64,000 nt of DNA, taken from Heterotrichella gracilis (lineage: Eukaryota > Sar > Xanthophyceae > Tribonematales > Xanthonemataceae). Position numbers and translations under genes: made by a program. Positions 1 to 63,915 of the stretch are shown here, in pieces (position 1 is the stretch's first letter; every line of letters starts with the position of its first letter). The notes under the pieces are model-generated. The model did no database searches and was not told the origin of the DNA. It saw nothing but the letters and a program-made list of their open reading frames with translations. The stretch lies in assembly GCA_032358255.1 (NCBI GenBank), contig JAULBX010024405.1, positions 219,536-283,535 of the forward strand, written 5' to 3'.

Positions 1-3000
1 GGGCGGGGTTGCGCAGCAGCTTGAGTAGGTCTGGGCTGAAGTCCTGCGGGGGGGGAAAGTTTGAAAGGATTGTAAAACCAATTCCACATATGGCGGTTCA
101 AATGACATTTGTTATACAATAATGTGTGTCTTTCAAGGGCACGCAAGGCAATAAGCCAATGGCGGTTTGGAATGCCTTTTGATTCTTATTCAATCATACG
201 AAATCAACAACAGCCAGAAGGCAAATTAACCATTGTCCAAACACCCTACCTCCAGTCCACCTAGGGTATAACTAGGGTTGGGCTTTAGGGCATTCATGAC
301 ATGTCATTACCTGTGCCGTGTACTCCTTTGGGTGCGCACCTCCCACGCTCCAATCTGTGCTGGTTACTGCACCCATGCAGTCGGTCTCATGCTCCTTGCC
401 TGCGGTCAGGATAATGGTATTATAAATATTCCATAATCGTTGTCATCATAAAATTGCTGCTTAAAGGGTATTTTCAGCCGTCGTGGCTTATTGCCTTGCG
501 CCTTTGAAGAGCAGGTTTTCATAGAGACTCTCAGTGCTTTATAAAAGGGGGGTGCAAACAACATTGCGGTGACACATGCACGAGCCCGGCTGGGGGCCTT
601 AATCTAATGCAAAGGTTTAGAGATCCAGAATTTCAAACCCAGACCAGCCCTCACCATGCACCGCCAGCACGGTGGCAAAGTAGTGCTCATCCCCGTAGCA
701 GTCCCGCCAATAATTGTACTCTTTATCCCATGAGGCATAGCAGTGGGTGGCAAAGGCATTGAAAACCTCGCCATCCCCCAGCGCTATTGCAGCGTGCTCT
801 CGGGTCAGCGCCCACCTGCACATGCACATGGCATTGACTGAACCCTAACCCTACAACCGAACCCCAAGCCCTTAACCCTAAACCTAATCCGATTGATATA
901 ATGTGCACTTGAAGAAACAATTATAGTTAGCTTTACCCAAAACCTCAAATTCCAAACCCCGCAGACAGTGGCATTGACTTCCTTCAATGTAATGATTGCA
1001 GCTTCTGAGCCACAGCCCAACCCCTAGACATGCATGGCATGCGGGCATCCCACCACCAGCCCAACCCATAGACATTCATGGCATGCATGCATCCACCTTT
1101 ACCACCACCCTGCATCAGACCACACTACAAGATATTCATGCTCTCACCACTGCGGCGACTTCCTCCAGTGGTAGAACCTCAGCCTGTGTGTGCGCATGCG
1201 GCGGCACCAGCGGTGGGGGCTGATGTTCCTCCCAGGTGTGCGGCAGGCGTGGATGCGGCTCTTCTCCTCACGCACCAGCTGCTGGTATACCACCTGTGGC
1301 GGGTACAGAAGCACAATGTCATGTCAATTTAGGGTTTAGGGTTTAGGGATCAGATTGTAGGGTGTAGGGTTTCGCTGATACACCACCTGTGGCCTGTGAG
1401 GTCACATCTTACTGTTTAGGGTTTAGGGGTTAATTTTCAGGCTCTAGGGTCTGGGGTCCGGCTGGTACGCTACCTGGGGCGGGTAGAGGGGCACATCTGA
1501 CTCGGACAGCAGCACAAATTTGGCATTCCGAGGGTCCTTCATGGCCTACTGGATCAGATTGAGCGCCGCTTGGACCAGGTCGTGGGTCCCCCCTTCCGCA
1601 CATTCACTGTTTAGGGTTTGGGTTTATGGTGTAGGATTTAAGGAGTAGGGCTTAGGGCTAGGGTCCGGCTGGAATATTACCTGGGGTGGGTAGAGGGGCA
1701 CATCTGACTCGGACAGCAGCACAAATTTGACATTCTGAGGGCCCTTCATGGCCTCCTGGATCAGATTGAGCGCTGCTTGGACCAGGTCGTGGGTGCCCCA
1801 CCGCGCGTTCACCCGGTTCTGAATCCCAGTGGATCGGAAGACGCTGTTGGGGGTGTAGCCCTGGAAGTCTGGAGCAGAGTGCACATAGATGTTGAACAGG
1901 TACTGGCTCTGCAACACCCTCCTCCCAGAGGCATGTTCTGACTGAGCAGGTGAGTCATAGTGGCTTTGAAGGGGGGTTTTCCCGTGGTCAGCGGGTGAAC
2001 CACGCTGTTTTGTACTTTCCACTGTGGTTGCACTCCTGCTCCAAGATTCTTGGTGGGCAGGTGGGTCAAGGGGGGGTGTGGAGTTGCTGCAGCTGTCTTT
2101 CAAGGAGTGGAAAGCCTCTGGAGATTTGCATGCCGCGCTGCTCAGGATGTGTTGCTTGCTGGCCAGGCCGTGTGCTGACTGCAGCCACTGTTTCCAAAGC
2201 CCCTCGTGGTGCAGTGGGCCTGACATGGGAGTGCACAATCATGATTTGAAATGAATGCATCTGATCATGTGACATTGCTAAGCCACCGGCATATGTACCC
2301 AGTATCCTATTGTTTGATACTGCATGAGGCTCTACATTCTTTTATGATATGGTCCAGCGTGCTGCTGGTGCAGATGGTTACATCAATGTAAACATCAGCA
2401 CCAGCAACATCATGGACCATAAGAAAGAAAGAAACAGAACGCCCCCACACAAATATAAAAAGGGATGTAGAGCCGCACGCAGCATCAAACAGTAGTATCC
2501 TGTGAAACGTCGACTTGGCAAGGGTGTGTAGCAGCATGTGGTGGTGCATTCTTTTGCAACCTCCAGTGTGGGTGGCCCCCAACGAGGACATCAAGACATG
2601 CAATGCACCTTGGCAGGTCTGTCAATGTATTCTTCATCATGGTTTCCACAGAATCTGATGGACCCCATCGTGGATGCTCATCCCGCACAGGTGATGAGGA
2701 TGAAGTCACAACCACATATGGGTACGATAGCATTGTGTATTTGTCTGATGGGTCTATATAGGTCCTAATGATACGTGGCGCCTCTCAGACAAACACACAA
2801 TGCTGTCCCACCCAGCTAGTGGCCGCCTGGCAGGCAACTGGATCAACTGTATCCAGTCTCAGGCTGTTTTCTATGGTGGTACATCATCACCCATGCACAG
2901 TGCTGTCCACTACAGTGTCACCATCCGTCTCTGGAAACTGCATGAGACACCACCCTGTTGTGAAGCAGCGCATTGTGCCGCGTCCACTTGAGACCCCCTG

Positions 3001-62900: not shown

Positions 62901-63915
62901 TGCATTCCAGGGCAGGCAGATAATAAGCCAGCCTTGCGCATGCAGCGCCAAGTAATTTATACCATTTAGTGATCTTGCACCACCCTCAACCAGAGCAAGC
63001 TATCCCCCTAGCAGAAACAATATTTTTTGAACCTACCAGGTTCCCGACGTTGGTCCCCATTTCTTGTGACACCTGCTTGGCCACCGTCACCGTTGCCACC
63101 CTTCTTGAAAGCCCCATACTTTACATGATAAAAGTGCCAGATTTAAACAAAAACCATTTTTCGACCGTCCACCAGGTGATGCAGAGCATGCTATCCCCCA
63201 ATTAGGAATTGGTGTTTTTCAACCTACCAGGTCCCCGACGTTGGTTCCCATCTCTTGCGACACCCGCTTGGACACCGTCACCGCAGCCACCCTCCTGGGC
63301 TGTGTGCACGCTATCATCCCCCCCTTGGCCCACCCAGCCTCCAGCAGAAACTGAGGCACCTGGGTGGTCTTGCCGCTGCCGGTCTCGCCCACCAAGACTA
63401 GGGTTTTGTGGATATTTAGCAGTCCCAGCAGCTTCTCGCGCGCTCCCCACATGGGCAGCTGTTTGCGCTCCTCCAAGAGCACTCGCCGCCTGAGAGGAGG
63501 GTGGGTGGTGGTGAGTGGGTGGATGGGTGGTGGGTGGGTCAGCGGCGGGGCGGGGGTGCGACAAAAAGTGGAGTGGGAGGGGATCAAAGGGGGGTTGAGG
63601 CAATGATAGAGGGGGCGCCCAAGATGGATGCGGTTAGTTTCGTGAGCTCCCCGCATTGGCAGCTACTTGCGTTCCTTCAAGAGCACGCGCCGCCTGAGAG
63701 GAGGGGAAATTGGGTGGGTGGGTTGGTGTGTCAGCGGAGGGGGGGGGGGGGGGGGGTGGGTTAGCGGAGGGGTGGGGCGGTGAAACGAGGGGTAGGGACC
63801 AAAGGGGTTTGGGGCGGTGCATATGCAGGCGGTGCCAGAGGAGACCCCCGGGATGGATGGGTATTTTTTGTGCGGAACAACATGGGTGGCTAGCAGTAGA
63901 GTACCTGCATGGCAT
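56938..63915 (-). CDS. DEAH-box RNA helicase, DHX33-like, 13 exons, about 648 aa
   Basis: Exons: 63905-63915, 63228-63489, 62759-62875, 61994-62068, 61607-61708, 60850-61022, 60360-60477, 59836-60007, 59444-59633, 58949-59149, 58382-58531, 57904-58058 and 56938-57158. They total 1947 bases with every phase fitting. Motifs in order: [10 protein letters not shown] (I), TQPRRVAA (Ia), [11 protein letters not shown] (II), VMSATLD (III), FLTGQDEIE (IV), [10 protein letters not shown] (V) and QRSGRAGRE (VI). The winged-helix/OB part has [26 protein letters not shown] and [18 protein letters not shown]. Details in the C-terminal part, such as YxRDL-x-VDAxWLxExAP, fit DHX33, which acts in rRNA synthesis and translation initiation. 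The start [13 protein letters not shown] has almost no N-terminal extension; a longer N-terminus beyond the window cannot be excluded. Confidence 0.9.
57295..57500 (-). repeat. Two upstream echoes of the last helicase exon
   Basis: 57300-57360 repeats the exon start and acceptor ([16 protein letters not shown] region). 57427-57497 repeats its middle (VVFNELVQ and HY-RD region). Between them they cover most of the parent exon. Confidence 0.9.
57775..58290 (-). repeat. Echoes on both sides of helicase exon 57904-58058
   Basis: Two copies of the 3' end (CACCATCAGGGTGCC plus GGGCAGTGTG) lie at 57771-57800 and 57835-57865, each followed by CCTAAATCCTAAACC. Two copies of the 5' end and TAG acceptor (CTTGCxCATGGCxCTAG) lie at 58138-58168 and 58245-58280. 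Confidence 0.88.
60590..60680 (-). repeat. Upstream echo of helicase exon 60360-60477
   Basis: GGGACCACCAACAGCTCCAT and CCCCAGGGGCTCTTCATGG parallel 60430-60485. Confidence 0.8.
61125..61560 (-). repeat. Echo cluster between helicase exons 5 and 6
   Basis: Two upstream echoes of exon 6 (61128-61202, with VDIF-TPA codons; 61310-61345, shorter) are followed by two downstream echoes of exon 5 end at 61410-61450 and 61508-61550 (ACCTGCAxxxxTGCxxTGGG motif). The latter are spaced about 96 bases from each other and from the true exon end at 61607. Confidence 0.85.
62187..62410 (-). repeat. Two upstream echoes of the DEAH exon
   Basis: Copies at 62195-62249 and 62357-62404 repeat the acceptor and [17 protein letters not shown] codons. 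The nearer one still encodes DEAH; the farther one reads DEAY. Both break off at the same codon (GATGTGCTGT) and run into ACCCTAAACC, so they lack the exon 3' end. Confidence 0.92.
62568..62640 (-). repeat. Downstream echo of helicase exon 62759-62875
   Basis: It repeats the codons for [21 protein letters not shown] and the donor with few changes, after TTTAGGGTAT spacer. Confidence 0.92.
63040..63105 (-). repeat. Downstream echo of helicase exon 63228-63489
   Basis: It repeats the exon end ([18 protein letters not shown] codons) and the CTACCAGGT donor, and also the AATTGGTGTTTTTC-like flank of the intron in altered form. A separate upstream echo of the exon start is at 63640-63700. Confidence 0.9.
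63739..63756. repeat. Poly-G tract
   Basis: About 18 consecutive G in helicase intron 1, within a GGGTGGGT-rich region (63490-63790). Confidence 0.9.

What the first reader, a model, noticed from the sequence alone, without database searches (positions are those of the whole stretch)
1..63915. Introns hold degenerate 'echo' copies of the neighbouring exon border, interleaved with telomere-type motifs
Seen directly at about 30 places in seven genes: GT14, P-loop ATPase, TMEM186-like, receptor kinase, J-reductase, eS19 and DEAH helicase. Copies of an exon 3' end plus donor lie downstream of the parent; copies of a 5' end plus acceptor lie upstream. Copies decay with distance and are usually joined by TTTAGGG/CCCTAAA blocks. 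A simple reading is repeated tandem duplication of border segments with breakpoints in short telomere-like tracts, which would lengthen introns and create decoy splice sites. I know of no standard feature type for this.
Basis: partly seen in the sequence, partly recalled or inferred. Interest (0 to 1): 0.9.

Follow-up and report, generated by a model that had tools for sequence, protein, structure and literature searches.

The report
Telomere-seamed copies of exon ends
Many introns of this alga-like genome hold worn copies of the end of the neighbouring exon, often joined by scraps of chromosome-end (telomere) sequence, as if DNA breaks near exon edges had been patched by copying the edge and adding telomere repeats.

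Summary
Comparing exon edges with their own introns gave 158 direct copies at 118 of 694 borders (51 at 38 of 136 in the window); shuffled and reverse-complemented queries gave none. Copies of a donor edge lie downstream and of an acceptor edge upstream in 109 of 115 classifiable pairs, as tandem duplication forces if the gene stays intact. Telomere-type sequence covers 5-7% of predicted introns but 0.2-0.6% of exons. It is densest between copies (12.5%, against 2-4% in outer flanks) and peaks 15-45 bp inside both intron ends. Copies hold about 50 bp of exon and often start 40-60 bp into the intron. Intron birth by AGGT duplication is not supported, and no dispersed repeat family was seen in the window. 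Best explanation: breaks near exon edges are repaired with a short tandem duplication, and telomerase often adds repeats at the junction. Each half is known; I found no report of their pairing at exon borders. A splicing or chromatin role for the motif, and selection on its orientation, remain open. The organism was not identified.

The parts
311..3949 (-). GT14 / Core-2 I-branching enzyme gene; three echoes of donor edges at ~1474-1533, ~3740-3796 and ~3637-3686
   Evidence: gene model; Pfam PF02485 E 1e-40; echoes
3590..3906 (-). 110-bp x 2.9 tandem array; each unit holds exon 3' end, donor and a telomere-type tract (AACCCTAAACCCTAAAA on +)
   Evidence: 89% matches; strip for border 3850
8404..16202 (+). 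P-loop ATPase gene (AAA_16-like) with twelve echoes at seven donor/acceptor borders
10560..11296 (+). intron with five successive echoes of the preceding exon end (~10618, ~10705, ~10855, ~10942, ~11035), identities 89-94%
10571..10608 (+). telomere-type tract, 5.4 copies of TTTAGGG, at the first junction, starting at base 12 of the intron
12936..13272 (+). intron with echoes at ~12988-13032 and ~13054-13097 of the exon end at 12935; TAGGGTCTAGGG-type tract before the first echo
   Evidence: no Pfam match for the protein
27104..37327 (-). LRR receptor kinase gene with twelve echoes in nine introns
27783..28552 (-). intron with echoes from both ends: acceptor-edge copies at ~27915-27974 and ~28055-28114, donor-edge copies at ~28365-28411 and ~28168-28215
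28867..28926 (-). 60-bp exon-edge echo, identical over the 60 exon bases tested, of the exon ending at 28768
41852..50654 (-). DnaJ plus zinc-type alcohol dehydrogenase region ('J-reductase'), predicted as two adjoining models; twelve echoes, several junctions AT-rich instead of telomeric
49574..49617 (-). donor-edge echo; junction 49618-49657 holds CCTAAACCCTAAACCCTACACCCT in sense
53304..55971 (-). ribosomal protein eS19 gene; echoes at ~54005-54033 and ~54279-54318; 102-bp repeat with a C-strand telomere tract in the 30-bp junction at 53375-53404
56938..63489 (-). DEAH helicase gene with ten echoes; the exon holding the DEAH motif (acceptor border 62068) has echoes at ~62193-62244 and ~62354-62405
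   Evidence: motif read from the translation
57768..57934 (-). 65-bp x 2.6 tandem array; exon end, donor GTG and a TTTAGGG-type tract starting 3 bp inside the intron, echo abutting the tract
   Evidence: 96% matches; strip for border 57904

Best explanation
These are scars of break repair at exon edges. A break or pair of staggered nicks forms with one cut a little inside the intron and the other some 50 bp inside the exon. Filling in both ends and rejoining them duplicates the stretch between the cuts. Before joining, telomerase often extends a free 3' end, leaving TTTAGGG or CCCTAAA repeats as filler between the copies. The copy still joined to the rest of the exon stays functional; the other is left in the intron, drifts as an echo with its decoy splice site, and lengthens the intron. 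Shown here: local direct duplication across borders, side, geometry, telomere enrichment at the inner junction, occurrence in three separate stretches, and a telomerase domain in the genome. Inferred: staggered breaks, telomerase as the source, and the order of steps.
For: 158 direct echoes at 118 of 694 borders, 0 in reverse orientation and 0 with shuffled queries. Telomere-like density is 12.5% in gaps, 6-7% in copies and 2-4% outside; 41 of 100 junctions against a mean of 16% in same-length intron segments. Within 30 bp of the echo edge, density is 0.18-0.24 on the junction side and 0.03-0.11 on the outer side. Median distance from tract end to echo start is 7.5 bp at donors and 4 bp at acceptors (the 57 of 76 nearest echoes with a tract). 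64 of 67 tract-bearing junctions hold one orientation only, 34 G-strand and 30 C-strand on the + strand, as extension of one end would give. Borders with an echo have a tract within 60 bp about twice as often (31 of 62 vs 77 of 272, p 0.0015; 21 of 54 vs 49 of 280, p 0.0009). TTTAGGG arrays lie at the ends of contigs C70 and C140, and the telomerase RNA-binding domain PF12009 at C626. Precedents: PMC7215372 (passages) reports telomeric inserts at breaks, with duplication at 3 of 66 horse loci; PMC8355091 (abstract and passages) reports tandem duplications from CST and Pol alpha fill-in of 3' overhangs.
Against: Many echo junctions have no telomere motif (51 of 114 nearest echoes), and some hold AT-rich filler. 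Tracts also occur in 46% of 248 introns without a visible copy, and introns outside duplicated spans are still 3.7-4.3% telomere-like. Tract length does not rise with copy identity (rho -0.06, n 71), although co-insertion predicts purer tracts in younger events. Some arrays carry the tract in every unit. Clustering of tracts 15-45 bp inside introns is not predicted by breaks at random positions. Intergenic regions have fewer tracts than introns (0.4-1.9% vs 4.1-6.7%), which a purely random break process does not predict either.
Confidence: 0.5

Rival explanations
1. Telomere tracts came first and act as fragile or slippage-prone sites: repeated replication slippage or unequal exchange starting in a tract near the splice site copies the adjoining exon edge, so the tract is cause rather than filler.
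For: Tracts are common near intron ends even without a visible copy. Young arrays such as 3590-3906 and 57768-57934 have the tract in every unit. A second tract peak about 100 bp further in fits copying of the tract with the unit. No link between tract length and copy age.
Against: The exon-side breakpoint carries no tract (exons 0.2-0.6%), so exchange between two tracts cannot set it. Tracts are scarcer at the outer edge of the echo than at the junction. About half of junctions have no tract.
Confidence: 0.22
2. The motif is a selected intron element (splicing enhancer near the donor, branch-point-like CCCTAAAC near the acceptor, or a site for telomere-repeat-binding proteins), and the exon-edge duplications are an unrelated mutation class that is simply common in this genome.
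For: The motif is intron-biased, peaks 15-45 bp from both splice sites, and is strongly skewed to CCCTAAA near acceptors (57 borders vs 13), where TTTAG would add a decoy acceptor. Telo boxes are reported to act in land-plant promoters (PMC3022908, passages and part 1 of its Discussion).
Against: 164 of 361 introns have no tract at all. Both orientations occur near donors (64 vs 44, p 0.07), odd for an RNA signal. Some tracts run to several repeats. Tracts are concentrated between copies, which this rival does not predict.
Confidence: 0.15
3. Introns were born here by tandem duplication of an exon stretch holding AG|GT, so the echoes are remnants of intron gain.
For: Duplications straddle exon borders more than by random placement (140 of 178 pairs vs 76 expected). 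Mean identity between the two borders of an intron is slightly higher at zero offset than at shifted offsets (0.293 vs 0.257), which shared splice-site letters may explain.
Against: Of 34 cases where a pair spans both borders of one intron, 2 have period and intron length agreeing within 6 bp, off by 5 and 6 bp. Of 452 introns 1 has 60% or more identity between its two borders at zero offset, about the rate at shifted offsets.
Confidence: 0.02
4. An introner-like or other mobile element with telomere-like ends inserted in introns, and the echoes are long target-site duplications.
For: Of 33 introns holding both orientations, 27 run G-strand then C-strand, like inverted ends.
Against: The window has only 2 direct repeat pairs farther apart than 1500 bp; by eye the fillers printed share no body beyond the telomere motif; the one AT-rich filler tested is single-copy in the genome.
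Confidence: 0.04
5. Assembly or read error created the copies.
For: No reads were available here.
Against: Between the 5th and 95th percentile, paired copies differ by 28 to 7%. Exon-edge copies never appeared inverted, and they obey a splice-site side rule in 109 of 115.
Confidence: 0.02

Closest known systems
Short interstitial telomeric sequences inserted at double-strand breaks (primates, rodents, horse; PMC7215372, passages)
   Same: Telomere repeats added inside chromosomes, attributed to telomerase at break repair; direct duplication of flanking sequence at a few loci (3 of 66 in horse).
   Different: There the human intron share is compatible with random insertion and duplication is rare; here tracts are intron-biased, cluster near splice sites and are often paired with a border duplication.
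Small tandem duplications from staggered breaks (CST and Pol alpha fill-in, PMC8355091, passages; paired nicks in plants, title seen only as a reference)
   Same: Direct local duplication of the stretch between two offset cuts.
   Different: No telomere filler and no link with exon borders in the passages read; periods here are longer than the 43-bp overhangs tested there.
Telo boxes of land plants (PMC3022908, passages and part of the Discussion)
   Same: Same motif; the authors propose telomerase acting on free 3' ends.
   Different: Enriched in 5'UTRs; introns 151 per Mb in Arabidopsis and 72 in rice (table; how strands were counted was not checked), against about 2500 per Mb in introns here, both strands.
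Intron gain by tandem duplication of AGGT (recalled)
   Same: Tandem duplication touching exon sequence.
   Different: Tested and not met.
Introner elements (recalled)
   Same: Reshaping of many introns in one genome.
   Different: No dispersed shared sequence seen in what was tested.

Membership tests
Short interstitial telomeric sequence (ITS) | Internal tracts of the organism's own telomere repeat | tested here: met
   5629 exact two-repeat sites genome-wide (contig ends included) vs 5 for the reversed pattern; contig-end arrays of the same repeat
Short interstitial telomeric sequence (ITS) | Insertion shown against an empty orthologous site | not testable with these tools
   no related genome is held (one search states no relatives)
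Short interstitial telomeric sequence (ITS) | Telomerase in the genome | tested here: met
   PF12009 over its cut-off in two pieces at C626; domain only, activity unknown
Tandem duplication by staggered-break fill-in | Direct, adjacent, local copies of the same strand | tested here: met
   (0 reverse-complement echoes)
Tandem duplication by staggered-break fill-in | Filler confined to the inner junction | tested here: inconclusive
   enriched at the inner junction, but some arrays repeat the tract in every unit
AGGT tandem-duplication intron gain | Period equals intron length, with both splice sites at the same place in the unit | tested here: not met
   2 of 34 within 6 bp, off by 5 and 6 bp
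Introner elements | Similar sequence in many unrelated introns | tested here: not met
   window self-comparison gives 2 far direct pairs; one AT-rich filler single-copy; no whole-genome all-against-all was possible
Selected intronic splicing motif | Present in most introns in one RNA orientation at one place | tested here: not met
   164 of 361 introns have none; near donors both orientations, 64 vs 44 borders

The most novel reading that the evidence does not exclude
In this lineage exon-intron borders are recurrent break sites that telomerase heals like chromosome ends, using the G-rich outward strand at the splice site as primer. Each healing copies the exon edge into the intron, so telomerase is a main engine of intron growth and of decoy splice sites.
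Probability: 0.25. Interest if true: 0.88.

Novelty: new variant of a known kind. Interest (0 to 1): 0.64.

Why it matters
It would give a readable record of how introns lengthen: each echo is an event with a known parent, a side and a filler. It ties break repair and telomerase to gene structure across a genome, suggests where breaks fall relative to exons, and provides many natural decoy splice sites of graded age for asking how the spliceosome ignores them. It also warns annotators: a simple gene finder calls the echoes as exons (54 of 553 flagged here).

Tried and rejected
Intron gain by AGGT duplication: tested and rejected. Mobile element: no shared body seen. Circularity of the intron label: a gene model without an intron-specific composition gave the same picture, weaker (introns 4.1-5.5%, intergenic 1.4-1.9%). 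Decoy exons inflating the border peak: removing them left the peak.

Outward G-strand orientation as proof of telomerase acting on the exon side: it looked general (23 of 31 single-orientation junctions), but in the larger set it is clear only at acceptors (26 vs 3; donors 20 vs 14, p 0.39), where selection against TTTAG as a decoy acceptor could explain it. I do not count it as evidence for telomerase. Borders free of the motif are somewhat G-rich in the outward direction (34% and 37% G), which is all that supports the primer idea of the novel case.

Tract length as a clock: no correlation. Strong decay with distance: only weakly supported. Loss or retention of decoy GT/AG beyond neutral drift: counted (55 of 64, 45 of 51) but not separable from alignment bias.

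Exon-border preference: partly ascertainment, because copies anchored in exons should stay recognisable longer; the aligned exon parts are more alike (0.83 and 0.87) than the intron parts (0.76 and 0.77), mainly through fewer gaps. Pairs wholly inside introns and pairs wholly intergenic occur at about the same rate (17 in 152 kb, 8 in 81 kb).

Rows dropped before counts: pairs under 35 bp, more than 40% telomere-like, or of low complexity (254 pairs to 231); 63 of 178 pairs that could not be classed for side; overlapping copies; predicted exons under 45 bp and flagged echoes (models, used); introns under 120 or over 2500 bp and borders with under 40 exon bases; nearest echoes outside 12-180 bp or beyond 110 bp (summary).
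Full report
WHAT WAS EXAMINED. The window is C244:219536-283535 of an unnamed 68.5-Mb genome in 903 contigs. I also read 200 kb of contig C2 (200001-400000) and 50 kb of C7 (1-50000), 314 kb in all, under 0.5% of the genome. The organism was not identified: the rRNA request did not complete. TTTAGGG arrays at the ends of contigs C70 and C140 (a capped list) show a plant-type telomere. 'Green alga' is an inference from that, from gene structure and from composition (53-57% GC).

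GENE MODELS. With no annotation at hand I wrote a self-training hidden Markov gene finder (69 genes, 553 exons, mean exon 147 bp, mean intron 312 bp, clear donor and acceptor profiles). These are predictions without RNA evidence.

THE COPIES ARE REAL. Self-comparison of the window gave 58 direct repeat pairs within 1500 bp, 2 farther, and 8 inverted. Three shuffled windows gave none. Near pairs (under 400 bp) occur at 8.1 per 10 kb in the window, 3.8 in C2 and 4.8 in C7, so the window is rich but not unique. In a test that does not rely on the repeat finder, exon edges were aligned to their own introns: 158 echoes at 118 of 694 borders, none for shuffled and none for reverse-complement queries; 143 of 158 lie in the near half of the intron. 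In the window 33 of 68 introns tested hold an echo, in C2 58 of 219, in C7 15 of 60, and those introns are longer (medians 506 vs 334, 430 vs 308, 395 vs 309 bp).

GEOMETRY. Of 178 non-redundant pairs, 115 could be classed as touching one exon border: donor edge copied downstream 63, upstream 1; acceptor edge copied upstream 46, downstream 5. This is what tandem duplication must give if the copy still joined to its exon remains the working one, so it is a check of the model rather than a second oddity. The exon part is short (median 52 bp at donors, 48 at acceptors). Echoes often begin 40-60 bp inside the intron, with a second group at 140-160. Periods have two modes, about 80-110 and 185-215 bp; I have no explanation for the second.

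TELOMERE-TYPE SEQUENCE. Ten-mers within one mismatch of the repeat cover 5.0-6.7% of predicted introns, 0.2-0.6% of exons and 0.4-1.0% of intergenic sequence. Over all 314 kb the repeat covers 2.9%, while the median of the 20 distinct motifs of the same composition is 0.44% and the next highest 0.67%. With a gene model that has no intron-specific composition the figures by class are 4.1-5.5, 0.2-0.5 and 1.4-1.9%. AAACCCTA/TAGGGTTT occurs about 2500 times per Mb of intron and 570 per Mb of intergenic sequence; the paper on Arabidopsis and rice lists 151 and 72 per Mb of intron. Tracts peak 15-45 bp from both intron ends. At 15-30 bp from the donor 11% of bases are in G-strand and 6.7% in C-strand tracts; at 60-90 bp each is 0.6-1.6%. 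At the acceptor the C-strand falls from 7.8% to 2.3-4.2% and the G-strand is about 1% throughout. The peak persists, lower, in introns without any visible copy.

JUNCTIONS. In 138 non-overlapping pairs the density is 12.5% between copies, 6.0 and 6.8% in the copies, 3.5 and 2.2% in the 50-bp outer flanks; 67 junctions have a tract and 64 of those show one orientation only. In a stricter set 41 of 100 junctions have it against a mean of 16% (maximum 28% in 200 resamplings) in same-length intron segments outside duplicated spans. In the first 30 bp from the echo edge the density is 0.18-0.24 on the junction side and 0.03-0.11 on the outer side. The layout can be read directly, for example at 57904 (minus strand): exon, GTG, a TTTAGGG-type tract, then a copy of the last 31 exon bases, then GTG and tract again. 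Other junctions are AT-rich instead (16-26% GC at 42259-42309, 42822-42879, 45135-45180).

RESULTS AGAINST A SIMPLE STORY. Decay with distance is weak. Tract length does not track copy identity. Tract orientation is skewed near acceptors (57 borders outward vs 13) but not significantly near donors (64 vs 44, p 0.07), so it can be explained by selection against TTTAG ahead of the true acceptor. Many tracts have no echo and many echoes no tract. Part of the exon-border preference is ascertainment: pairs wholly in introns and wholly intergenic are about equally frequent per kb, while exon-anchored copies stay recognisable. The intron bias of the tracts themselves is not explained that way.

HOW IT MOST LIKELY WORKS. 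A break with offset cuts near an exon edge is filled in and joined, duplicating the stretch between the cuts, and telomerase often extends one 3' end before joining. Both halves have precedents: fill-in of 3' overhangs by the CST and Pol alpha complex, itself a telomere complex, makes small tandem duplications (PMC8355091, abstract and passages); telomeric inserts at natural breaks are reported in mammals, with duplication at 3 of 66 horse loci (PMC7215372, passages); and telomerase acting on free 3' ends was proposed for plant telo boxes (PMC3022908, passages and part 1 of its Discussion). The genome has a telomerase RNA-binding domain. Staggered breaks, telomerase as the source, and the reason for proximity to splice sites are inferences.

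LITERATURE. Ten full-text searches, of which I saw the listings, showed no report of exon-edge copies joined by telomere repeats. Only open-licence papers are held, two searches found nothing at all, and in effect searched 'intron length' alone, so this is weak evidence of absence. The passages read of the Coccomyxa genome paper (PMC3446292) mention telomeres only with chromosome ends and Zepp clusters. The Chlamydomonas telomere paper (PMC6549138, passages) notes interstitial repeats without linking them to introns in the passages shown.

VERDICT. A real and well-patterned feature, present in all three stretches read, whose parts are known but whose combination at exon borders I have not seen described. 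The mechanism is plausible but unproven without empty sites, reads or RNA.

Noticed in passing
42259-42309, 42822-42879, 45135-45180; also C2:360550-360616 (L025): Junctions between copies filled with AT-rich sequence (16-26% GC) instead of telomere repeats; the C2 one is single-copy in the genome.
   Followed up: partly
all three stretches: Duplication periods are bimodal, about 80-110 and 185-215 bp; pairs of period 175-230 less often have a tract in the junction than those of 60-130 (0.28 of 40 vs 0.56 of 39).
   Followed up: partly
24062-25372: Spc25-like gene has no telomere-like bases at all, so genes differ strongly.
   Followed up: no
33265-33306; 9510-9723; 36246-36431; 40417-40684; 47043-47259: Inverted repeats / hairpins, the first a perfect 42-bp palindrome.
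   Followed up: no
44122-50654: One gene model joins a DnaJ domain and an alcohol-dehydrogenase N-terminal domain; may be a true fusion or two genes merged by the finder.
   Followed up: no
39889-40203: Coding tandem repeat (EERKLAIEERKLAIE-type) in a predicted protein, 21-bp units.
   Followed up: no
G000:C70:7-76 and C140:4-73: CCCTAAA arrays at the left ends of contigs, in the orientation of a chromosome end.
   Followed up: no
G000:C120:45703-45794 and C390:19019-19109: The telomere-rich tandem unit near 57.8 kb of the window matches other places at 74-76%, probably through the repeat itself.
   Followed up: no
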